A DNA stretch of 64,000 nt from Rhodobacteraceae bacterium bin131 (lineage in GTDB: Bacteria > Pseudomonadota > Alphaproteobacteria > Rhodobacterales > Rhodobacteraceae): positions 1-64,000 of the forward strand of contig MPNP01000005.1 in NCBI GenBank assembly GCA_002239085.1, in the 5' to 3' direction. The translations under genes were made by a program, and so were the position numbers. Positions 430 through 42,611 of the stretch are shown here, one piece after another (position 1 is the stretch's first letter; each line of letters begins with the position of its first letter). Below the pieces are notes generated by a model. The model ran no database searches. It saw nothing but the letters and a program-made list of their open reading frames with translations, and was not told the origin of the DNA.

Positions 430-3400
430 TCAGAACGACCACTCAATCCCTAATCGCAAGCCATAAGACGTGTCATCCGCTCCCAATCCATGCGCATACA
501 CCATCCCATGAAACTCCGTGTCACCCTGATGCAATACACCCCCAACATCCAATAACAGACGCGTTGCCTTCGCCTGACTTGATAACACCTCATCACCAAC
601 CATCACGGTACTCGCTTCACTCACTGCCGTCTCAATACCCGCCGAACCGCGCAACACAACACGACGGTCCTCATTCTCCTGAACCATCGTCCGCTCACCC
701 CGGACTCCAACACCTGCTATCACCTGACGCTCCTGACCACTCACACGTAAGCCCAACGAATCCTCAAACGGGGTCACCGATACATTCGCATGCTTCAACC
801 ATCCCCGACCCGTCACACGGGTCTCGTCATCAACATGAAAGTGACGCCCCCCTTCAAGACCAAGCGACCATGCCGTCCCCTTGGTCGTCCCACGCACCGC
901 ACCCGATACCAGATTAAGCGTATACCGCGTCCACTGTAATTGCGCCTGACCATACAGGTCATTATCACCCATCACCTGAACACCACCGTGCACACCAACA
1001 CCACGCACCGTCACACGACTTGACCCAGCGGCGATGTTTACATTCGCCTCACCGGACACCTGCCGCAGACCCGCCCATCCCGAGACCTGTTCGCTCAACG
1101 GCCTCATGATATGACTGTGGAGAGCCTGCTGGTCATACGAATAGCTCATTCCGGTTGTGGTTTGGTCCGGGGTGTATTGACCCCGTCCTCCACAGACACC
1201 AATGTAATTCTGTTGTGTGGGCACATGACATGCCATGGTGTCAATGCGGCGAAGGGCTCCTGGTAAGGCTTCGTAAGCACCGGCAATCGCTTGATAGCGA
1301 TACAACCAATCCTCTTCATCGGAGAAGTCAAGCGTACTATAATCTTCGTCAGGATTGAGTTGAACTTCACGCAGCGATCCGGCTGGAAGCCAAACATCAA
1401 TGTGGCCGCTATCAAATACATTCGTGCCATTGACCGCGAGGATTGTTTGACCACCCTCATTCACAATACGACCCGGCAAGCGCTCCCACGGCTTGCCGTC
1501 CATTGATTCAAGATTAACATACAGTTTTCTTTGCGGTTCTTCACCGGTGTCTTCACTAGTACTGTTGTCACCAACCGCAAGAATGGCAATACCCGATTGA
1601 GCCCCAAGAACCCCTTCGGGGCCAATCGTCACGCGACCACCACCAGCCATGAATACACCCGCACCGTCAGTACCATCATCTTCCTTGCTCTTTTCACCAC
1701 CCATCACTGTGCCATTAATACGAACCATCTGTTGTCGGTAGCCAGCATTCAATAACTGCCGGTTGCCATTATTGTCAACACTCACTGCCGAAACTCTTTC
1801 AATTTTACCATCATCGTTTAAACGACCGAATTTTATACCATAAGCACCAACACCACTCGCCGTAATATTGTCAACGACAACCTCACTCGACCCGATACCA
1901 GCATGCTCAATGTGTATACCATGTGCATTAGCTCCCTTAGTCGTGATGGTGTGACCATCTCGCGTGGTAATACTCACATTACCTTCTCCAGTATTTTCAT
2001 GCCATACAGAAATTCCGTAAGATTCGTCAGTGTTGGTCGTTACGCTTCCCCCTGCAACATCAATAACTATTTTCTCGTTAGCTTCGTCGTCAGTGTCCTC
2101 TTCGGTGGATTGGGGTCCTTGATGGTGGACATAAATCCCGTGAGAACTCGCTCCTTCAGTTGTGATTGCCGCCTTCTCTAAAACATTTATATCAAAATTC
2201 CCTGAGCCAGTATGTTCTCCAACAATCCCATGCGCACCCGGACCATTTGTGGTGATACTGCCCCCAGAAACTGCAATTGTGATATTACCAGAAATTGATG
2301 CCGTATCGGTGCCAATATGTCTTCCAAAAATTCCATGTGCACCCTGGCCTTTGGTGGTGATACTGCCCCCAGAAACTGCAATTGTGATATCACCAGAAAT
2401 AGATGCCGTACCGAGGCCAGTATGTCCTCCCAAAATTCCGTAAGCATACCTCCCTTTGGTGGTGATACTGCCCCCAGAAACTGCAATTGTGATATTACCA
2501 GAAATAATTGCCGTATTGGTGCCAATATGTCTTCCAAAAATTCCGTTAGCTTCCCTACCCCCGGTGGTGATACTCCCATTCGTTACAGAAATTGTTGTAT
2601 TACCAGAAATAGATGATTTTTCTTGGCCTGTTTTTTCTCCAAAAATTCCGTGCGCATTCTGGAAATTGGTGGTGATACTGCCCCCAGAAACTGCAATTGT
2701 GATATTACCAGAAATAGATGCAGTATCGGTGCCAGTATGTCTTCCAACAATCCCATGCGCACCCTGACCATTAGTGATGATACTGCCCCCAGAAACTGCA
2801 ATTGTGATAGTACCAGGAATAGACTCACCACTGTCGCCAGTATGTTCTCCATAAACCCCGTACGCACCTTGGCGATTGGTGGTGATGCTTCCCCCCGAAA
2901 CTGCAATTGTGATAGTACCGGCGCGTGTATGTTCTCCATAAACCCCGTGAGCATCCATCCCTTTGGTGTGGATCCTTACTCCTCCTGAAACGGTTATATC
3001 GATATCGCCTATGCCTTGATGTATTCCCAAAATTCCGTAAGCATCTTGGTTATTGGTGGTGATGCTTCCCCCCGAAACAGAAATAGATCCATTACCGGTA
3101 CCTGAATGATCTGCATCAATCCCGGGAGCCTGATAACCCTCGGTGGTTATACTCCCATTCGTTACAGAAATTGTTGCATTGCCGGCACCTGTATGGTGTC
3201 CCCAAATTCCTCTAGATTCCTGACCCTTGGTGATGATATTCCCATTCGATACAGAAATTGTTATATTACCGTTACCGTTATGTTCTCCATCAATTCCGTG
3301 TGCTATCCCATCAGTGGTGGTGATACTTCCTCCAGAAACTGTAATTCCGATATTTCCTCTTTTTGTAGCGGTTTTAAAATTTGCATAAATTCCTCTAGAT

Positions 3401-3950
3401 TCCTGACCCTTGGTGATGATATTCCCATTCGTTACAGAAATTGTTGTATCACCGGTACCTTGATGATCTCCAAAAATTCCGTGAGCAAGCACACCATTGT
3501 TAGTATTGATGCTCCCACTAAATACAGTAATTCCTGAATTACCGGTGCCCTGATGTCGTGCCAAAATCCCATAATTATTGAAGGAACCATTGGTAGAAAT
3601 TTCTCTTCTTGAAACAAGGATCCTTATAGTACCACTTGTTTGGGCCGTTACTGTACAACTGATTTCGTTAGAGCCGGGTATAGCAACATTCGTGCCAGGA
3701 GGACAGGTCCACGAATCTTGAGCCGACACGTTGACTGGTAGAAACACACTCCATGAAACGAGAAAGAATAAAACTGACCACAGACCAAAATTACGGCTTG
3801 TATTTGAGTGGACATGATTAGGCTCATTGCTCCTTAAGCAACGAATTAAATCCTTATGATGGGGGGGGGGTGAATCAGGGCTGTCGCATTTATCTCTCCT
3901 AAATTGCGTTGCTTGCTTGATGCTTTAGCCCAGAGTTGAAACAGATTCAT
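430..3950 (-). CDS. Autotransporter with repeat passenger and C-terminal beta-barrel; ORF track gives 430..3747 (GTG start), proposed true start is ATG at 3950, out of frame because of the 10-G tract
   Basis: Repeated 'GNITIAVSGGSITTNGQGAHGIFGRHTGT' units; C-terminus ends '...SYGLRLGIEWSF' (autotransporter barrel with terminal aromatic). Upstream of 3747 the same frame encodes LWSVLFFLVSWSVFLPVNVSAQ (signal peptide core), so GTG 3747 truncates it. ATG 3950 preceded by AGGTAG. Confidence 0.8.
2200..3620. repeat. Imperfect ~105-bp (35 aa) tandem repeats in the autotransporter passenger
   Basis: 'ggtgatactgcccccagaaactgcaattgtgatattaccagaaat' recurs near 2250, 2355, 2460, 2670 and 2775 with about 105-bp spacing, plus diverged copies to ~3600. 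Confidence 0.85.
3861..3870. repeat. Homopolymer (G)10 tract, candidate phase-variation switch
   Basis: Read directly: tccttatgat gggggggggg tgaatc; lies 26 codons after ATG 3950. Confidence 0.9.
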
Positions 3951-4286
3951 TTTTCTACCTACTAAAATGTAATAACTTTGACAGAGTTTTAATTTAATGT
4001 TCAACTGAATGCAATCTATAAATTGAATTCAGTTTCTGGATATCATAAAAGTTAAAATGCCCAAATTACTAGTTCTAGACGGAAGAATTTTTTTGACTTG
4101 ATAATCTGGGAGAATTTTTTCAATAAAGGAATCTAATATTTAACTCTCAATCATCTCTAACCTGATGAATGGGGCTTTAATAACAGTGCTGGCTTTTCGT
4201 AACTGTTGTTTCTCTTGCACCTCGGTAACATCTTAGATTATAGCATCATTGGGGTAGTTCATACTACCGCAAGAACTATTAAGCAA

Positions 4287-4560
4287 CTAGTTGAACACTG
4301 GAACTTCATCGCTTAATACTTGTCGAAACTTCTCCATATCAATGTTGCCACCAGATAAGATAAAGCTCACTTTTTTACTCTGCAATTGAGCTCTGTCACG
4401 GACTAAACCTGCCAACCCTATTGCACCAGCTCCCTCTGCAACATTGTGTGTCGTTCGAAATATACATTGTATTGCTAACATTATTTCACTTTCCGAAACT
4501 GAAACAATTCGTTCAACACCTTAAGCGTAGTGATCTAATGCTTCTTGAACCGCGGGGCTA
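4287..4560 (-). pseudogene. C-terminal fragment of a threonine dehydratase-like PLP enzyme
   Basis: GVERIVSVSESEIMLAIQCIFRTTHNVAEGAGAIGLAGLVRDRAQLQSKKVSFILSGGNID resembles threonine ammonia-lyase C-terminal catalytic region; in-frame TAA upstream and no N-terminus. Confidence 0.6.
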
Positions 4561-4982
4561 TCGCTTTTGAAATTTTCCAGTTGTGAATAGAGGATACGCC
4601 CACCCGGTGAACGGGTCCACCCAGCGGGATGATGGCTGGCTATCATCGCTTCCCAGTGTGGCCGTTCCGCATCCGTGACACACTCAACGCTGAGCGTGTC
4701 CAGTTCCGACAGGCGTCCCGTAATGGTTTGGTCGGAAAACCCGGTGGGTAGAGCGGGATGGGATTCCGGCATTGCAACTTGGGTGGCGGGCAACGAGACC
4801 TCAAGAAGTGTGGCCAATTTTGGTAACAGTTTCTGAGCTGCTGCTCGGCTACTCAGTTGCTCGCGATGATATAAAGCTTCAGCCAGGGCTGGACGCGACA
4901 ACCCGGACACCTCAGCGTTCTGACACTCCTGCCTGAACCAGCAGGCGGTGGAAGATGAAAGTTGAAAAGTACCAATAAACAT
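4521..4982 (-). pseudogene. Fragment resembling DUF4338 (DruA-like) transposase-associated protein, fused in frame to the threonine dehydratase remnant
   Basis: 'ERPHWEAMIASHHPAGWTRSPGGRILYSQL' resembles the DUF4338 core (…HWxxLIxxHHYLGYxxxxGxxLRY…); continues into 'SDSPAVQEALDHYA*GVERIVSVSESEI'. Confidence 0.4.
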
Positions 4983-5229
4983 GAAACAGTAAATGGCATA
5001 AAAACATCACGGATTTAAGTGTGATAAATTGATAGGATTCTCAGAGGGGCGACTAGTGGCGATGCAGGAAGGGCTTAGCCCGACCGAAATTGCCAATCAT
5101 CGATAAGTTCAGAGGCCTCAAATGACATTGGCAGTGACCTGTGCAATCATGTGCTCTTTAACATTATCAATTAAAGGAGAACACTTTGCCCGGATACCAT
5201 ATTAACACTAATCAAATGAGGCTCTTCAT

Positions 5230-5500
5230 GACATATAGTCAAATCGATACCGTTTTGACGGCGGCCGCCCGAAGCGAGATTGAGTGAAGCCACGGGTTGG
5301 CGTATCCAAAGACCTTCCTGCCTTCCTGACGACAAGAAGACACAACGCGGTCGGCGGCGCCCAGACCCTCTGGACGACATCTTTGCGAATGACGTCGTTC
5401 CGATGCTCAAGGAAGGAAACGAGACGTATAATATGATTCACCATGCAACACATTCGCCGTTTATACCTAAACCACCTGATGTGGATGATGGCGATGATTA
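5230..5500 (+). mobile_element. Possible degenerate IS21-type transposase fragment
   Basis: 'RGRRRPDPLDDIFANDVVPMLKEGN' resembles the IstA 'RPDPF…VWE.EIVPMLE' region; short and frame-disrupted. Confidence 0.25.
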
Positions 5501-5868
5501 AGAACCGTCATTTTAAGAGGGACATATTTGGAAGAGAGCAAGGTGGTTTGTAGTTTATCCCCAGTAGCCTTGTCCCTTTGGTGAATACAAAGAGACCCTC
5601 TTTTTGATCCACATATCGATGCCTGAATAGCTAATTTTAGAATGGTTTTCTACTATTCTGTCCCAGTGTCTAAGCAAATGACCGTAATCAAATCTTGATA
5701 CTGCAATCACTCCACTACAAAACTCTGTACGATTGTCAGATATCAATCATATTTAGTGTATTAAATCTAATGTTCATTTAAAAAATATATAGATTTTGCA
5801 TTGAACTAATTGCGACACTGTATAAATATGCCCATAGATTGCAAGATTCTTATTTTGCTAGTTTCTTT

Positions 5869-5943
5869 TCCGACGTAGCTCAGTGGTAGAGCAGTTGACT
5901 GTTAATCAATTGGTCGCAGGTTCGAATCCCGCCGTCGGAGCCA
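5869..5943 (+). tRNA. tRNA-Asn(GTT), CCA encoded
   Basis: Cloverleaf tccgacg…cgtcgga-g-cca; anticodon arm ttgactGTTaatcaa; GGTTCGAATCC T-arm. Confidence 0.95.
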
Positions 5944-6020
5944 CTCTTTCCAAAATACAGTGAACTGAAAACGGTGGTGGTGTTAGCCTTTAAGGTTCTT
6001 GTTTCATTCACTGGCTAAAG

Positions 6021-6461
6021 TCAGGGATAGCTTAACCATATTGTAACAGGGCCATCATTAATCAGCGAAACCTCCATTTCAGAACCGAACTGACCTGTTT
6101 TTACGTTTGGACATTTTTTTTGGAGCTGCTGGACTAACTCATCAAAGATTTTCATGGCATATTCCGGTGGAGCAGATTTTGAAAATCCAGGGCGATTACC
6201 TCGTGATAAATCAGCCGAAAGGGTAAACTGGCTGACGGCAAGAATTTCACCGCCAATATCGTTGACAGACAGGTTCATTTTGGCATTATTATCGCGGAAT
6301 ATTCGCATGTTAACAATTTTCTTGGAAACATGTTCAATCACCTGACTATCGTCGTTTGAAAGGGCACATACAAAGACCAGCAGACCTGATCCAATGGTGG
6401 CAACTGAGGTATGTTGAACTAATACTTCAGCCGATTTAACACGTTGAATTAAACAAAGCAT
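6021..6461 (-). CDS. dtd: D-aminoacyl-tRNA deacylase
   Basis: MLCLIQRVKSAEV…GGEILAVSQFTLSADLSRGNRPGFSKSAPPEYA…GQFGSEMEVSLINDGPVTIWL: DTD signature motifs. Confidence 0.95.
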   Translation of the reverse strand: MLCLIQRVKSAEVLVQHTSVATIGSGLLVFVCALSNDDSQVIEHVSKKIVNMRIFRDNNAKMNLSVNDIGGEILAVSQFTLSADLSRGNRPGFSKSAPPEYAMKIFDELVQQLQKKCPNVKTGQFGSEMEVSLINDGPVTIWLSYP

Positions 6462-6688
6462 TCTTGTGAGAAATTAAATTGAAAAGTTCACAGCCGTATT
6501 TGTAAATCTGTAATTTTAAATCCATTAAACTTTAATTTGGATAAAAATTCTGTAACACTCCATTGTGCTTAATTTTTTCATAGTAACAACAAGAAATTGT
6601 AATTTTGCTTCTAGTTGGAGTGAACTAGTTACATCTTTAAATGATTTGCTCAAATCATTCCTAATTATATTCTGATAAGAGAGTTCCA

Positions 6689-7126
6689 GTGCCCCATAAT
6701 AAATTTTCTAATCTTGTTGATGATTTTACCTTTCTTGAAACATGGGAAGATCGATACGGTTACATCATTGATCTCGGTAAGCAAATGCCTGAACTTGAAG
6801 ATGAATTTAAGGTTGATGCCGCCAAAGTTGAGGGATGTGCAAGCCAAGTTTGGTTGGTAACTTGGACAAACTGTATTGATGGAGAAGATGAACCAAGATT
6901 CCAATTTAAAGCAGATAGTGATGCCTTTATTGTTCGTGGATTGATTGCAATATTGAAAATCTTATTCAATGGCTTGCCCGTCAGCGAAGTGGTCAGACTA
7001 AACGCGGTAGATCACCTAAATGAATTAGGTCTCGATTCCCACTTAACTCCCCAAAGATCAAATGGACTAAGGGCTATGGTCAACCGAATCAAGCAAAAGG
7101 CTGAAAGCAATATAGATACATTTTGA
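6689..7126 (+). CDS. SufE family protein
   Basis: FLETWEDRYGYIIDLGKQMPELEDEFKVDAAKVEGCASQVWL: SufE cysteine motif. Confidence 0.92.
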   Translation: MPHNKFSNLVDDFTFLETWEDRYGYIIDLGKQMPELEDEFKVDAAKVEGCASQVWLVTWTNCIDGEDEPRFQFKADSDAFIVRGLIAILKILFNGLPVSEVVRLNAVDHLNELGLDSHLTPQRSNGLRAMVNRIKQKAESNIDTF

Positions 7127-7820
7127 TTGAACTGATTAGCTTGGAGGCCAACAAACTCTTGATAAATTACTAGCAAGCGAAAGAGAATTTTCTTTTGAAA
7201 GCTATTTGATTATAACTTTGTAAGAATTTAAACATCCGCTGAATTTTGAAAAGTTAATCCACAATCACAAGTAACTCACCTTGAAATTTCTTCATGTGAA
7301 ATTGGCTTGTACTTTTTTGGTCAACTGTTTCGGTCACATAAAATAGAGATTTATAAAATCACTAAGCAATGTTTTGATAAAAGTTGTGACTTGCAGTAAT
7401 TGGACGAGAACTCACCGAACTCAAATCAGGAATAATCCTTATTCTGGGGTAATTTGTCGCAAGTGATAAACCATGGTTCCTTTGAACTGTACCGATTTCT
7501 GTCAATTTAGGGATGTCTTTACCCTGCTTGAATGGACGACAAAATGATTCGTTGGGCACACTGCCACTTTGATTGAGGTTGATTGACATTGCACATTTCG
7601 TTGCAGTTTATCTGTTTAAGTATACGAGTATTGTTTTGGGGCAGTTTCAATCCCTATTGTCGACAGTTGATTACCATATTACAATATCGGCCTCTCTATT
7701 GTTTGATTGCTCTGTTAGAAATTTCTGTTGTATTTTTTTTAAAATTAATATAAATTCTTAGAACCTCATAAATTGTGATTTCCTGTTTTTAGAATTTATT
7801 TTGAAAACAGGAGCACTTAC

Positions 7821-7854
7821 GCCAAGGCAGAGTTTTCTCTGCCTTGGCATTTTT
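7821..7854 (+). terminator. Rho-independent-like hairpin with T run
   Basis: GCCAAGGCAGAG-TTTT-CTCTGCCTTGGC-ATTTTT, 12-bp perfect stem. Confidence 0.8.
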
Positions 7855-8351
7855 CATAGAAGGAAAGCGTTCCATAATTTTGGGTTAATTTTGATCACAT
7901 ACTGTAACCTTTGGGAAAACCGCTGCGATATTACCCAAGCACTCTGGATACATACCCCCACACTTTATAAAATCAATCTTACTCCAAAGCGACTCGACTG
8001 AGCAGTATGCATGAACAATGCAACAGAAAATTCTTTCCATTGAATTCTTGGATATAGCATAGGGTAGGGGGCTGCCATAGGCCAAATCGGACTGAATACT
8101 TCTTCTTGACACATGCCTATTATTCAGTCAGACTTTATCAGAGGTAAAGGCCAATAATAACCAAACGGAATAGACCAATTTTATTCTGACTATTGAATAT
8201 GACCTTCCAAGATTTAATTCCGATATAAGCGATAAAAAGCGAGGTTGAATAAATTTTTCAAATAAGAAAAATTCTTTTGGGTGTATAACTAAATTTGTGT
8301 ATAAGGTTGTCATCTTATTTTACCAGATTAGTTTGAAATGGGAGAGCGCTG

Positions 8352-9059
8352 ATGTCCGAAGATTATGATGATGATATAGTTCTTTCTGAATTACCTAATG
8401 ATGAATTAGTCCTTCAGATGCACGATGACCTCTATGATGGCTTGAATGATGAAGTGGTTGAAGGGGTCAATATTTTATTAGAACGTGGCTGGTTACCCTA
8501 TAAAGTTCTAACTGAGGCATTGGTCGAAGGAATGCGCATTGTAGGCATTGATTTTCGTGATGGTATCCTTTTTGTTCCAGAAGTGCTCCTCTCAGCGAAT
8601 GCCATGAAAGCCGGGATGGTTATACTTAAGCCATTGCTTGCTGAAACTGGTGCTCCTCGCATGGGTAAAATGGTCATCGGTACTGTCAAAGGTGACATTC
8701 ACGACATTGGAAAAAATCTGGTTACGATGATGATGGAGGGAGCAGGTTTTGAAGTTGTTGATCTCGGGATTAACAACCCTGTCGAAAATTACCTGGAAGC
8801 GATCGACTCAGAAAATCCAGATATCCTAGGAATGTCTGCACTCCTAACGACAACCATGCCCTACATGAAAGTTGTTATTGACAAACTCAAGGAACTGGGC
8901 ATTCGTGAAAATCTAGTCGTTCTAGTTGGTGGAGCTCCCCTTAACGAAGAGTTTGGCAAAGCAATAGGGGCTGATGCATATTGTCGAGACGCAGCCGTTG
9001 CTGTTGAAACCGCAAAAGAATTTATGGCGCGGAAACACAATCAGTTAATGGCTACCTAA
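8352..9059 (+). CDS. Corrinoid (B12-binding) methyltransferase partner protein, MttC/MtbC-like
   Basis: GKMVIGTVKGDIHDIGKNLVTMMMEGAGFEVVDLG (DxHxxG motif) plus four-helix N-terminal domain. Confidence 0.93.
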   Translation: MSEDYDDDIVLSELPNDELVLQMHDDLYDGLNDEVVEGVNILLERGWLPYKVLTEALVEGMRIVGIDFRDGILFVPEVLLSANAMKAGMVILKPLLAETGAPRMGKMVIGTVKGDIHDIGKNLVTMMMEGAGFEVVDLGINNPVENYLEAIDSENPDILGMSALLTTTMPYMKVVIDKLKELGIRENLVVLVGGAPLNEEFGKAIGADAYCRDAAVAVETAKEFMARKHNQLMAT

Positions 9060-36669: not shown

Positions 36670-39615
36670 TCAAGTTTGAACCCTATGATTTTTATAACCC
36701 TTATATAACTCATGGAAGACTAGGTCTTTTATTTGCGGGTTCGAATCTATTTTTTCATAGAAATCAAATTTCCCATTTGAGTATTTTTCAACCATTATTT
36801 GATCGAGCCTCTTTTTGAAGTAGCTCTTTTTATTGTCTTCGGAGTTGCTTTCGTTCAAGTATAATCCTGTATCTGAATCTTCAATTAAACTCTTGTTGAG
36901 ACTAGCGAATTCAAGTTTGTCTTTTTCATTCAGAATAATTCCATAGGTGTTATTCAATTGATTGATAATTTCGGTCAAGAAGTCGTATTCTAATTCCCTT
37001 GAACTAAAGCAAGGGTAATTCTCAACAGGTTGAATTCCTGCGCTTATTGGCTCTAGACTTTCATTATTTTCATGAACTTTTTGAATTCTGAGTGAATCTA
37101 ATTCAATCGCATTCAAGATATTGAACCGATCTCCCTGACGCTTGGGCAACTTCTTATGGAGATACTTAAGGAATATAAAAGTCTTCTCTAGTTCAATATC
37201 TGAGAAGTTAATGATCTGAGATAGAAACCCATACAGATGATTGTAAGATTGGATATTATTTCTATAATCTTCTTTTAACTTATCGTCATCAATGGAGTTA
37301 TACTTGTCAACCACCTGGTCAAGAATTGGATGAAGATCGCCTTCATCTCGATTATGGTCGTAGAAGACTTCACAGAAACGATTAACATCCTCATTGGTAA
37401 ATAAATAGAGGTCATAAATCTTCCTTTTAAGATCATACAATCGGTTGGGATCTGTTTCGCTTTCAAGGAACGTTGATTTATAAAATCTTTGAAAAGATTC
37501 ACGAATATCATCAAGTTTATTTACGAAATCCAAGACGAATGTTTGGGACTTACCTGAAGCAGTACGGTTTAAGCGTGATAGCGTTTGAACACATTGGACA
37601 CTACGAAGTTTCTTATCCACATACATGGATTGAACCAAAGGTTCATCAAAACCTGTAAGAAATTTGTTTGCTACTACAAGGAGACGATATTTTGGGCTTT
37701 TTAATCCGAGAGGAACGTCTCCATTTTGACCAATAGATTGGTTGCATGTTTGCTCAGTATATTTCTTACCATCAACGGTAACTTCACCTGAAAACCCAAC
37801 CAAACAATGATATGAGGTGCCTCTCATTTTAAGTTGCTGGTTAATTTCATTGAAATACCTGACACAGTTTTTTCGTGATTGAGTGACTACCATTCCACGT
37901 GATTGACCTTTTATCTCTTTTGATCCTTTATTTATCCAATGATCTAAAATAACCTGAACCTTATTTTTGACCGTCAACTTATGTGAATCGACGTACCTAA
38001 TGATTTCTCCTTTGACCTTATCTTTAGGAACCTCTATGTCGCCATCAATGGTTTTTTTTACTTTGAAGTAACGTTCATAGGTGGTGTAATTCAATAGAAC
38101 ATCCAAAGTGAAGCCTTCGTAGATGGATTGATGCATTGAATAAGTGTCAAATGGGTTAAAGGTTCCTTCGGGTGTCTTGGCTCCAAACAACTCAAGTGTT
38201 TGTTCTTTTGGTGTCCCTGTAAATCCAAAGAATGAGATGTGATCTTGTCGCCCTCGACTTTGTATCACTTTTCGTAACATCTCTTCGTAATCAAAGGCAT
38301 CATCATCTTTATTCTTTGATAAAGACCTCTTTAATTCTTTGGATAACTCACCCGACTGACTTGAATGGACCTCGTCAATGATGACCGCAAAAGTCCTATC
38401 ACCAAGTGATGCGATTGTTTTAGAAATGAATGGGAATTTCTGAATAGTTGTGATGACAATAGCTTTACCTTGCTCTAAAAACTTCTTCAGTTCTTTAGAA
38501 CCATGTTCAACCGCATTCACAACACCAATGATTTTTTCGAATGAGCGAATTGTATTTCGGAGTTGGTTATCAAGAACCTTTCTATCTGTCACAACAATTA
38601 TCGTATCAAACATAGGCGTAGTATCACCTTTGTATCGATACAATGAATTGAGGGTATAAGTTAACCAACAGATTGAATAGGATTTACCAGACCCTGTTGT
38701 ATGTTGGACGAGATATTTTTTACCTACACCGTCCTTAATTAATTGACAACGAAATTTACGGATAAGATTGAGTTGGTGATACCGAGGGAAGATTAGTAGT
38801 TCATTTTCTTTTTTTTCAATTTTCTCCGTCTTGTTGTTGAAGATGTAATCTTTCTTTTTCGCCACATGAACAAAGTTTTCAATAATATCAAGAATAGATG
38901 AAGGAAGGAGTATTTCTTCCCAAAAATACTTAGTTCGATATCCCTTTTCAACAGGTGGGTTTTCACGATCTTTGTTGTAAGGAAGGAAAGAGGTCTTTTT
39001 ACCTGCTAACCGAGTAGACATTGAAATATTGTTATTATCGATACAAAAATGAACCATACATCTTTTAAATTCCAGTAAAGGTTCTTTTGGATCACGATAA
39101 TGACGATATTGACTTTCAGAATCTTTGAAATTTTGTCCTGTGAGTTGGTTCTTTAACTCCATGGTTACAATGGGGAGACCATTCAGAAACAGAACCATAT
39201 CTATTGAGTTTTCGTTTTTGTTAGAATAATGAAGTTGCCGAACAACCGTAAAATGGTTTGACTGATATAGATTGAAGTGGTCAGGATTGAGATCACTCTT
39301 CGGCTTGAAGTAACAGAGGTTAAGATTGATGCTACGGTCAACAACTTGATTTCTTAAGACATCAATAATTCCTCGTTTTGAAATCTCACTTGAAATACGA
39401 GTTAGAACTTTATTCTCGACATCCTGGTTATAGATTTCTTGAAGTCGAAGCCAATTATTTGGTTGGGTTAAGCGAATGAAATTAATGACCTTAATTGGGA
39501 TTAAACATAGATTACGGTCATATTCACTACTTATAATCGATGAATAACCAACCGACTTAAGGTGACCCTCAATATATTCTTCGAATCGTTTCTCAGTAGG
39601 AAGTAAATCACTCAT
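36670..39615 (-). CDS. hsdR: Type I restriction enzyme R subunit
   Basis: VQHTTGSGKSYSICWLTYTL, VVTDRKVLDNQLRNTI, VIIDEVHSSQSGE, FFGFTGTP; N-terminal nuclease domain IDMVLFLNGLPIVTMELKN. Confidence 0.97.
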   Translation of the reverse strand: MSDLLPTEKRFEEYIEGHLKSVGYSSIISSEYDRNLCLIPIKVINFIRLTQPNNWLRLQEIYNQDVENKVLTRISSEISKRGIIDVLRNQVVDRSINLNLCYFKPKSDLNPDHFNLYQSNHFTVVRQLHYSNKNENSIDMVLFLNGLPIVTMELKNQLTGQNFKDSESQYRHYRDPKEPLLEFKRCMVHFCIDNNNISMSTRLAGKKTSFLPYNKDRENPPVEKGYRTKYFWEEILLPSSILDIIENFVHVAKKKDYIFNNKTEKIEKKENELLIFPRYHQLNLIRKFRCQLIKDGVGKKYLVQHTTGSGKSYSICWLTYTLNSLYRYKGDTTPMFDTIIVVTDRKVLDNQLRNTIRSFEKIIGVVNAVEHGSKELKKFLEQGKAIVITTIQKFPFISKTIASLGDRTFAVIIDEVHSSQSGELSKELKRSLSKNKDDDAFDYEEMLRKVIQSRGRQDHISFFGFTGTPKEQTLELFGAKTPEGTFNPFDTYSMHQSIYEGFTLDVLLNYTTYERYFKVKKTIDGDIEVPKDKVKGEIIRYVDSHKLTVKNKVQVILDHWINKGSKEIKGQSRGMVVTQSRKNCVRYFNEINQQLKMRGTSYHCLVGFSGEVTVDGKKYTEQTCNQSIGQNGDVPLGLKSPKYRLLVVANKFLTGFDEPLVQSMYVDKKLRSVQCVQTLSRLNRTASGKSQTFVLDFVNKLDDIRESFQRFYKSTFLESETDPNRLYDLKRKIYDLYLFTNEDVNRFCEVFYDHNRDEGDLHPILDQVVDKYNSIDDDKLKEDYRNNIQSYNHLYGFLSQIINFSDIELEKTFIFLKYLHKKLPKRQGDRFNILNAIELDSLRIQKVHENNESLEPISAGIQPVENYPCFSSRELEYDFLTEIINQLNNTYGIILNEKDKLEFASLNKSLIEDSDTGLYLNESNSEDNKKSYFKKRLDQIMVEKYSNGKFDFYEKIDSNPQIKDLVFHELYKGYKNHRVQT

Positions 39616-40948
39616 CTCATTCCCTCCGATACACTGATCTTGCCAGTTACAACAGAAGATATGAGTGTTTGACGGTACTCAGAATATAGATTAATTTTTT
39701 TTTCTAATAGGAAAATGGTTTTATCTATTATTTCATTCTTCTTATCTAGATACCGAGAGATTGATTTTTGTTCAATTAAGGGGGGTAGGAGAGCAATTAC
39801 ATTTTCGAAAGAGTTATCATAAAGTCTGAGTCTGGAATTAGTAATACCTTTAGAATTTCGTCTAAATTCAGATATGTATACATCGGACCTCAATAGATAG
39901 TTAAAGTAAGTAGGATCACAATTATTGTTGAATGAAAAAACAGAATATGCTGGGGAAACTATACCATCATAAGAGCTCACTCCTAGACCTCGTTTCCACA
40001 CAAGCATAATGTTGTTTACTAAATCACCCTTTTTTACAATTCGATAGCCTATCAGGTTTTCGGATCTACTTAAATTCTCGTCGTCACCTTTCAATTCTCG
40101 TCGTTTAACAATTCCTTTTTTTTCAGTTACTGAAAGGAGTTCCTCTTCTCCAGATTTAGAAAGTTCTTTTTGAGAATTTGTTAAGTATTTTAGTCGAACA
40201 GTTTCCCAATTTTTTGGTATCTCACAGATCCACTTAACACCGCTATCTTTCGTTTCTACATTCGAGTCAAGACCATTCGTGACACAATGATTGATCAATG
40301 AAATTCGTTGTTCTTTGAGGAGCTCAATTTTCTTTTGAATTCTCTTGATCAGAGAATCAATCAGATATGTTTTCTTATCAAGAAAATGAGCGATAAGTTC
40401 CTGGTCGGTGGGGGGGGGGTAAGAACTTTCAATTTGACAAGATCTGAGGAATTAATTATTGGATAACAAACGCCTTCAGATTCGCTGATTAATCTATCAA
40501 TGAACCAATCAGAGACAACAAAATAGTAAAGATACCTAAAGTTTAATTTATTATTTTTCTTTCGAAGAACACAGAATCCAGTTGATCCTATAAGGTTTTG
40601 ACATTCTGGAACTTGACTGATTGTTCTCATATAAGCACTAACGGTTGATATTATAATATCATTTTTTCGAAGAACTCGTCTTGCTCTTGAAGGTGCATCT
40701 TTAAATCTGATTTTTTTACCGAATTTGATACCGGAATATTGATCAACGTCACTGATTTGTATGTAGTTGAATTCAAAATCTGGATCAGTTCTATTATCTA
40801 AGGTCTCGGAATTAAAATCAACTAGATATTTTAATTTCACCATAGACCATCCATCAGGAATTTTTCCTAACTGATCATGACAAGAGTCAAGATTTTTCTG
40901 ATCATTCAATGTATATCTCCAACGATAACTTTTTGAGCTCTTCATCAA
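39612..40948 (-). CDS. hsdS: Type I restriction S (specificity) subunit, split into two ORFs (40361..40948 and 39612..40298) at a poly-G tract
   Basis: TRD1 half GKIPDGWSMVKLKYLVDF…VKLKVLTPPP; second half KDSGVKWICEIPKNWETVRLKYL…PPLIEQKSISRYLDKKNEIIDKTIFLLEKKINLYSEYRQTLISSVVTGKI. An 11-C (or 8-C) tract joins them through TDQELIAHFLDKKTYLIDSLIKRIQKKIELLKEQRISLINHCVTNGLDSNVE, a typical HsdS central helix. Confidence 0.95.
40410..40419. repeat. Homopolymer (G)10 tract inside hsdS
   Basis: ctggtcggtggggggggggtaagaactttc; frame break lies here. Confidence 0.9.
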
Positions 40949-42611
40949 GAGATTTCAATTCTGAAGAGATTTCCTTCAAGCTTCTGAGAGGAGTGAATTT
41001 TTGGAAATATTTATTGAAGTTGATCTCATAACCAATTTTATCCTTTGAACGGTCCATCCATGAATCTAGAAGGAATGGTTTCACCTCTTGGTTGTAATAT
41101 TCCTCAATACTTTCTGACAATGGAATTCGTTCATAGTCCCGTTTTGAGGTGTCAGGCTTCGGGTTACCTTTTCGGTCTGTCTTTATTTTACCGTCTTCCA
41201 TAAGTGGTTGTTCAATGACAACTTTTGTATACCCAAAGAAATCGTTAGGAAAAATCTTACAGTATTCGCTCTCTTCGTTTTTTTGATAAATCTCAAACAA
41301 TTGTTGGGTTTGTTCTTCAGTGATGTATTTACCTTTGGCTCCAAGGTTTTTCTTCATTGCGGTCCAGAAAGAAGTTCCATTAATTAGTTGAACTTTACCT
41401 CTACGATCTAATGATTTTTTGTTTGTCAAAATCCAAATGTAGGTTGTAATGCCGGTATTGAAGAACATCCGATCAGGAAGTGAAACAATACAGTCCAACC
41501 AATCATTCTCAATGACCCATTTTCGAATTTCTGATTCACCACTACCAGCGTCACCTGTAAAAAGTGGTGAACCGTTAAAGACGATGCCGATACGAGTTCC
41601 ATTTAGGTCCATCTTGTGTATGAGATGCTGAAGGAATAACAATGATCCATCTGAAGTTCGAGGTGTTCCAACAAAGAAACGACCATTAGGGTCTTTGGCT
41701 TCTTCTTTCACGAATTCTTCTTCTGATTTCCAACTTACACCAAATGGTGGATTGGTGATCATGTAATCAAACTTACGACCAAGATAACAATCACCTGATA
41801 TCGATGAGGTAGGACCCTGGATATTATTTGGATTCTCGTCCATCATTAATAGATCGGACTTGCAGATTGAATAAGTTACATCGTTCAACTCTTGACCATA
41901 CAAATCGATCTTGAGATTTAGGTTGATGTTCTCAAGAACCCATTCTTTACCGATGGTTAACATACCACCTGTTCCACAGCATGGATCGAAAACGGATCTA
42001 ATTTTACCTTCACCTTGAAGGTCTGTCATATCACCTCCAAACACAAAAGAGACAAGAAGTTTCACAACATCACGTGGTGTGAAGTGGTCGCCACTCTCTT
42101 CGTTGGACATCTCTGAAAACCTACGAAGAAGTTCTTCATAAACAGTTCCCATTTGATGATTGTCAATCTTTTTTGGGTGAAGGTCAAACTCTGAGAATTT
42201 TTCGATCAGAAGAAATAGACGATTGTTTCTATGAAGTTTCTTAACCAATGGATTAATTGAGAAGTTCTCAATGATGTCCAATACATTTGCTGAATATCCC
42301 TGAACATAGTTTTCGAAGTTCAACAAAACGTTAGTAGGGTCTTTCTTGATGCGCAATAGATCAAACTTTGAACTATTATAGAAAGTTAGTCCAATTTGAC
42401 TAAGAATGACAGGAGTGGGATCTGATAGTTTTTTGAACTTGTTATAAAGTTTGATTACTTCATCCTTTTTTGGTTCTAAAACACAATCTAGACGTCTCAT
42501 AACAACAAAAGGCAAGATGACTCGACCATACTCGGATGGTTTAAAGAGACCACGAAGGACTTCGTCTGCTGCTGACCAAATCATGGATGACAGTTTAGTC
42601 GTGTTATTCAT
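40902..42611 (-). CDS. hsdM: Type I restriction-modification M subunit
   Basis: HFTPRDVVKLLVSFVFGG, VFDPCCGTGGMLTIGKEW, YMITNPPFGVSW (NPPF). Confidence 0.97.
   Translation of the reverse strand: MNNTTKLSSMIWSAADEVLRGLFKPSEYGRVILPFVVMRRLDCVLEPKKDEVIKLYNKFKKLSDPTPVILSQIGLTFYNSSKFDLLRIKKDPTNVLLNFENYVQGYSANVLDIIENFSINPLVKKLHRNNRLFLLIEKFSEFDLHPKKIDNHQMGTVYEELLRRFSEMSNEESGDHFTPRDVVKLLVSFVFGGDMTDLQGEGKIRSVFDPCCGTGGMLTIGKEWVLENINLNLKIDLYGQELNDVTYSICKSDLLMMDENPNNIQGPTSSISGDCYLGRKFDYMITNPPFGVSWKSEEEFVKEEAKDPNGRFFVGTPRTSDGSLLFLQHLIHKMDLNGTRIGIVFNGSPLFTGDAGSGESEIRKWVIENDWLDCIVSLPDRMFFNTGITTYIWILTNKKSLDRRGKVQLINGTSFWTAMKKNLGAKGKYITEEQTQQLFEIYQKNEESEYCKIFPNDFFGYTKVVIEQPLMEDGKIKTDRKGNPKPDTSKRDYERIPLSESIEEYYNQEVKPFLLDSWMDRSKDKIGYEINFNKYFQKFTPLRSLKEISSELKSLDEELKKLSLEIYIE

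What the first reader, a model, noticed from the sequence alone, without database searches (positions are those of the whole stretch)
39612..40948. Phase-variable hsdS: a poly-G(10) tract splits the type I specificity subunit between its two TRDs
The frame break falls exactly in the tract. With 10 C the product ends LTPPPPTRNLSLIFLIRKHI*. With 11 (or 8) C it reads LTPPPTDQELIAHFLDKKTYLIDSLIKRIQKKIELLKEQRISLINHCVTNGLDSNVETKDSGVKW, an intact ~445-aa HsdS. hsdM and hsdR are intact, so the system should be functional in one state. Switching would alter genome-wide methylation, i.e. a phasevarion.
Basis: partly seen in the sequence, partly recalled or inferred. Interest (0 to 1): 0.85.

Follow-up and report, generated by a model that had tools for sequence, protein, structure and literature searches.

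The report
Poly-C switch splitting a restriction-specificity gene
A run of ten C's throws the DNA-recognition subunit of a bacterial restriction-modification system out of frame, and the same genome carries similar length-unstable runs in about twenty other restriction-modification genes, so the population probably keeps a constantly reshuffled mix of DNA-methylation and anti-phage states.

Summary
Confirmed. G10 at 40410-40419 (C10 in the gene) separates two open frames of one hsdS. They join only at tract lengths 8, 11 or 14. hsdM and hsdR, in the same operon, are intact. The tract sits in the conserved PP..EQ..I hinge just after TRD1, so the C10 product lacks the central helix and TRD2. Two A/T runs (T9, T8) in the same gene are in frame.

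The larger finding is in the genome. This MAG has 84 G/C runs >=9 against about 3.5 expected. Where they lie in long ORFs, 31 are out of frame and 22 in frame, close to random. Shorter G/C runs are 126 in frame and 3 out. About 26 of 59 tract-bearing ORFs are restriction-modification genes (18-22 distinct). A congener has a tract in the same hsdS hinge.

Slipped-strand ON/OFF switching of HsdS is the best explanation. Length polymorphism was not observed directly, because no reads were available. A "phasevarion" in the sense of regulated gene expression is untested. The single switch is a new member of a known kind (NgoAV hsdS, H. pylori HP1471). The scale of the set exceeds the nine restriction-modification candidates that I found reported for H. 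pylori.

The parts
40410..40419 (+). G10 tract (C10 in the coding strand of hsdS); frame break between TRD1 and the central helix
   Evidence: only lengths 8/11/14 give one open frame
40361..40945 (-). 5' part of hsdS: TRD1, then the frame-shifted tail and stop made with C10 (194 aa from ATG)
   Evidence: Pfam Methylase_S 2.3e-7; PDB HsdS 3okg E=6e-23, residues 27-181
39612..40409 (-). 3' part of hsdS: central conserved helix, TRD2, C-terminal conserved helix; open in the other frame up to the tract
   Evidence: 69% identical over 195 aa to L107 HsdS, 47% over 250 aa to L106 HsdS; PDB HsdS matches
40902..42611 (-). hsdM, intact, overlaps the hsdS start
   Evidence: N6_Mtase 7.5e-56, HsdM_N 2.4e-22; 83% identical to L107 HsdM
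36670..39615 (-). hsdR, intact; its ATG overlaps the hsdS stop (ATGA)
   Evidence: HSDR_N, SWI2/SNF2, ResIII, T1R_D3-like; overlap read
39695..39703 (+). T9 run inside hsdS that is in frame: internal control against a general homopolymer error
40116..40123 (+). T8 run inside hsdS, also in frame
3861..3870 (+). second G10 tract of the window, near the N terminus (codon about 45) of a ~1190-aa ORF on -, out of frame; same class of tract
   Evidence: flanks 93%/88% identical to a paralogue with G11 (L057)

Best explanation
The C10 run in hsdS is a hypermutable contingency tract. Slipped-strand mispairing changes its length. At 8, 11 or 14 C a full HsdS (TRD1, central helix, TRD2, C-terminal helix) is made, and the M2S and R2M2S enzymes methylate and restrict one bipartite site. 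At other lengths translation ends just after TRD1, the central helix and TRD2 are lost, and both modification and restriction are off together; the ATGA overlap may also reduce HsdR. The consensus shown is OFF. This is one of 18-22 restriction-modification genes with such tracts in this genome. The whole set most likely gives the population a mix of methylation and restriction states, chiefly as bet-hedging against phages and foreign DNA. Shown here: anatomy, frame logic, tract excess, near-random frame, enrichment in restriction-modification genes. Inferred: slippage at this locus, loss of activity when OFF, selective role.
For: Frame logic and intact operon. Both halves match HsdS on either side of the hinge. 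84 G/C runs >=9 but only 4 of exactly 8, about 3.5 expected. In spanning ORFs 31 OFF/22 ON, not different from 2/3 OFF (p=0.24), against 126 ON/3 OFF for G/C 5-6 runs (p=2e-17) and p=5e-17 for A/T runs. T9 and T8 in the same gene are in frame. Paralogues with 93-98% identical flanks carry G9, G10 and G13. 26 of 59 tract ORFs are restriction-modification genes. Congener G002 (1% contamination) repeats the pattern, with tracts in two hsdS genes, one at the same PPP hinge. Tract and N6_N4 methylase counts rise together over 9 congeneric genomes, Spearman 0.95. Codon third positions diverge most in hsdM, hsdR and hsdS against L107, as expected for genes kept under selection.
Against: No reads, so no length polymorphism was seen at this tract. 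The genome is a MAG (416 contigs, 5.7% contamination). No other genome searched holds the same system with a tract; the closest homologue, L107, has an intact HsdS without one. Not all tracts lie in genes (28 of 81 have no spanning ORF >=200 aa). MutS is present, so loss of MutS is not the cause of the tract excess.
Confidence: 0.8

Rival explanations
1. Sequencing or assembly indel: the gene is really in frame at one fixed length and the consensus miscounts the run.
For: Homopolymers of 10 are error-prone; the genome is a MAG of unknown read type.
Against: A/T runs of 6-12 and G/C runs of 5-6 are in frame almost always, including T9 and T8 in this gene. Miscounting cannot create 84 runs >=9 where 3.5 are expected, nor put nearly half of the tract ORFs in restriction-modification genes. 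A/T runs >=9 in ORFs are few (3, all in frame), so a length-dependent error is not fully excluded.
Confidence: 0.1
2. Dead gene: hsdS is a pseudogene fixed in the C10 state, and the system no longer works.
For: The consensus is frame-shifted, and no intact copy of this allele was found.
Against: No other lesion in a 444-codon gene or in hsdM and hsdR; third-position-biased divergence; 22 of 53 comparable tracts in the genome are in frame.
Confidence: 0.07
3. Specificity switch rather than ON/OFF: short HsdS forms made at C10 dimerise and give a different, palindromic specificity, as in NgoAV.
For: NgoAV precedent: a 208-aa truncated HsdS is active with a different specificity (PMC9577141). The downstream frame has an internal TTG (40298) that could start a TRD2 half-subunit.
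Against: Here the break lies before the central helix, which half-subunits use to dimerise (position; structural role from general knowledge of HsdS). The internal TTG has no evident ribosome-binding site.
Confidence: 0.12
4. Ribosomal or transcriptional slippage on the C run produces full HsdS from the C10 allele at a low constant level, so there is no genetic switch.
For: The needed shift is -1, and homopolymers can slip during transcription or translation (general knowledge).
Against: Does not explain why tract lengths are near-random with respect to frame across the genome.
Confidence: 0.06

Closest known systems
NgoAV type I system of Neisseria gonorrhoeae (hsdS poly-G; PMC9577141, PMC6789123)
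   Same: Type I hsdS divided by a G/C run whose length decides between a truncated and a full HsdS.
   Different: NgoAV switches specificity because its truncated HsdS is active; its run is G6-G9 and there is an hsdS1/hsdS2 arrangement. Here the run is C10 and the break precedes the central helix, so OFF is predicted.
Helicobacter pylori HP1471 (S-like subunit; PMC4209511)
   Same: Homopolymer (G13) directly between the two TRDs of a specificity subunit; one of several phase-variable restriction-modification genes in the genome.
   Different: Type II system subunit in a gastric pathogen. H. pylori has nine restriction-modification candidates among 46 phase-variable genes, against 18-22 here.
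SSR-containing type I and type III systems surveyed in REBASE (figures quoted in PMC7394358)
   Same: Simple repeats in hsdS (7.9%) and type III mod genes (17.4%).
   Different: Those percentages are across genomes; here roughly a third of one genome's restriction-modification genes carry a tract.
Campylobacter phasomes (PMC8355987)
   Same: Tens of intragenic G/C runs per genome.
   Different: The largest shares of the phase-variable genes in C. jejuni lie in the flagellar and capsule regions; here the largest identifiable class is restriction-modification.

Membership tests
Type I restriction-modification system (hsdMSR) | hsdM with N6-adenine methylase motifs and HsdM_N | tested here: met
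   FDPCCGTGG and NPPF visible
Type I restriction-modification system (hsdMSR) | hsdS with two TRDs and conserved helices | tested here: met
   Two halves match HsdS of known structure and relatives, but in two frames at C10
Type I restriction-modification system (hsdMSR) | hsdR with nuclease and translocase domains | tested here: met
Type I restriction-modification system (hsdMSR) | Methylation and restriction activity at a bipartite site | not testable with these tools
   needs a methylome and plating assay
SSR phase-variable gene | Intragenic repeat, of a class with near-random length, whose length sets the frame | tested here: met
   (frame logic and genome-wide near-random frame)
SSR phase-variable gene | Observed reversible length polymorphism in one population | not testable with these tools
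   no reads; only paralogues differing in length
NgoAV-type specificity switch | Truncated form keeps the parts needed for dimerisation and is active | tested here: inconclusive
   Truncation falls before the central helix; activity not testable
Phasevarion | Expression of a gene set changes with methylase state | not testable with these tools
   needs RNA-seq of ON and OFF clones

The most novel reading that the evidence does not exclude
This lineage runs a combinatorial phase-variable immune repertoire: about twenty independent restriction-modification genes of several types (I, IIG/fused, EcoRI-type, III-like, ISP) each switch through G/C tracts at near-random phase, so a clonal population holds an enormous number of methylation and restriction states that phages grown on one cell cannot match in the next. 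Tracts have been placed repeatedly and independently at Pro-Pro or Gly-Gly motifs of these enzymes in related species.
Probability: 0.5. Interest if true: 0.8.

Novelty: new member of a known kind. Interest (0 to 1): 0.6.

Why it matters
Phase-variable restriction-modification is known mostly from host-adapted pathogens with a few such genes each, where gene regulation is stressed and the role in phage defence is debated (PMC11868660). A genome in which the largest identifiable class of length-unstable genes is restriction-modification would be a test case for the defence and bet-hedging explanation, and the prediction is directly checkable from existing metagenome reads.

Tried and rejected
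Loss of MutS as the cause of tract richness: MutS is present in tract-rich and tract-poor congeners alike (MutL not tested). The same hsdMSR system in other genomes of the family: a sample of 199 genomes gave only HsdM relatives at 48% identity or less; the closest is a Nitrospira MAG, 83%, whose HsdS has no tract of 7 or more C or G. Scans of viral contigs for other alleles gave no answer from the server. The paper with the type I SSR survey itself is not held; its figures are taken from PMC7394358.

Full report
Observation. The + strand of the window has ten G at 40410-40419. On the - strand this is C10 inside a type I specificity gene. A script that varied the run from 6 to 14 C found one continuous frame only at 8, 11 and 14 (444-446 aa); every other length stops shortly after the run. 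The start is more likely ATG 40945, which lines up with the start of the homologue in L107.

Anatomy. The order is hsdM (42611-40902), hsdS (40945-39612), hsdR (39615-36670). HsdM has HsdM_N and N6_Mtase domains, and HsdR has the nuclease and SWI2/SNF2 domains. The 5' piece of hsdS matches TRD1 of solved HsdS proteins (3okg, E=6e-23, residues 27-181). The 3' piece matches the central helix, TRD2 and C-terminal helix of HsdS from a Poribacteria MAG (47% over 250 aa), and its TRD2 part is 69% identical to TRD1 of HsdS from a Nitrospira MAG. The run encodes the prolines of the LTPPPTDQELIAHFLD stretch, the usual end-of-TRD PP..EQ..I motif, and the join lies before the central helix. The ATG of hsdR overlaps the stop of hsdS (ATGA).

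Is it hypermutable? No reads were available, so the question was put to the genome. The assembly (3.74 Mb, 416 contigs) has 84 G/C runs of 9 or more but only 4 more of exactly 8, against about 3.5 runs >=9 expected from composition. For 81 distinct runs I asked whether a long ORF spans the run at some length class: 53 have one of at least 200 aa with 25 on each side; 31 are out of frame at the assembled length and 22 in frame. This does not differ from the two thirds out of frame expected if length were random (p=0.24), and differs sharply from G/C runs of 5-6 (126 in, 3 out; p=2e-17) and A/T runs of 6-12 (p=5e-17) in the same DNA. hsdS itself holds a T9 and a T8 run that are in frame. Copies with nearly identical flanks differ in run length, for example G9, G10 and G13 in three Mrr/ResIII genes.

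What carries the tracts? Pfam and PADLOC scans place about 26 of 59 tract-bearing ORFs in restriction-modification: hsdS (this one and two on contig 161), a fused methylase-specificity protein (contig 316), N6_N4 methylases of type III or nuclease-fused kind, N6 methylases, four EcoRI-type methylases, and type ISP or Mrr-helicase proteins. A self-comparison of 25 of these pieces gives 22 distinct genes, or 18 if copies of about 85% identity and more are merged. With rough denominators of 55-60 restriction-modification genes and an assumed 3600 other genes, the odds ratio is above 50; the denominators are estimates. The rest include fibronectin/Calx-beta surface proteins, sugar-transfer enzymes and a paralogous family with the run near the N terminus, one of which is in the window (run at 3861-3870).

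Relatives. Of nine genomes of the genus, G002 has 87 runs and G004 41, the other relatives 4-33. Run counts and N6_N4 methylase counts rise together (Spearman 0.95, n=9), with genome relatedness not corrected for. In G002 runs lie in two hsdS genes, one in the same PPP hinge as here, and in two nuclease-fused methylases, but many of its tract genes look like short secreted proteins. The out-of-frame share there is similar (15 of 26 at the same cut-off), though its control runs are noisier. MutS is present.

Mechanism. Slippage in the C run changes the frame. In the 8/11/14 state complete HsdS allows methylation and restriction; in other states neither is possible because both need HsdS, so switching OFF should be safe for the cell. 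The NgoAV alternative, an active truncated HsdS, is less likely because the break precedes the central helix, but is not excluded. The most economical role, given the company of about twenty other such genes, is diversification of restriction and modification states within a population; gene regulation remains possible.

Comparison with what is known. NgoAV of N. gonorrhoeae has a poly-G in hsdS (PMC9577141), and H. pylori HP1471 has a homopolymer directly between two TRDs (PMC4209511). Repeats occur in 7.9% of hsdS and 17.4% of type III mod genes (PMC7394358). The switch is thus a new member of a known kind. The number in one genome is larger than the nine restriction-modification candidates listed for H. 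pylori (PMC4209511); I did not find a report of a comparable set in the held library, which does not prove that none exists.

Organism. The MttB-like protein of the window is about 60% identical to copies in Paracoccus, Sinorhizobium and Shinella, and the assigned family contains about 200 sampled genera, so an alphaproteobacterium, possibly of the Rhodobacteraceae, is likely; this is inference.

Limits. One consensus per genome, a fragmented MAG with 5.7% contamination, short contigs among the tract-bearing genes, and no reads or methylome.

Noticed in passing
window 3861-3870 (ORF about 433-4005, - strand): Second G10 tract, out of frame, near the N terminus of a ~1190-aa protein with no Pfam match; its flanks are 93%/88% identical to L057 (G11), and a similar N-terminal-tract family (L038, L053, L074, L091) has run lengths of 9-12.
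   Followed up: partly
G000 and G002 tracts genome-wide: The three bases 3' of the G run are TAA/TAG/TGA in 41 of 80 tracts >=9 (7-17% for shorter runs), whichever strand the gene is on; same direction in G002. Unexplained.
   Followed up: partly
L107 (Nitrospira lenta MAG) 2803-8793: Close relative of this hsdMSR (HsdM 83%) in another phylum; window TRD2 corresponds to TRD1 of L107, so TRDs have moved between positions.
   Followed up: partly
L058 (contig 161) 6843-10900: Two hsdS genes around one hsdM, with three C9 tracts; the second hsdS is in frame at one tract and out of frame at the other.
   Followed up: partly
L095 (contig 358), L056, L076: Four EcoRI-type adenine methylases, each with a G9-G11 run in the conserved WGG..MGVPITFLDKY motif.
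   Followed up: partly
L064 (contig 189), 1501-1525: A run of 25 G inside an 875-aa open frame with no Pfam match; longest tract seen.
   Followed up: no
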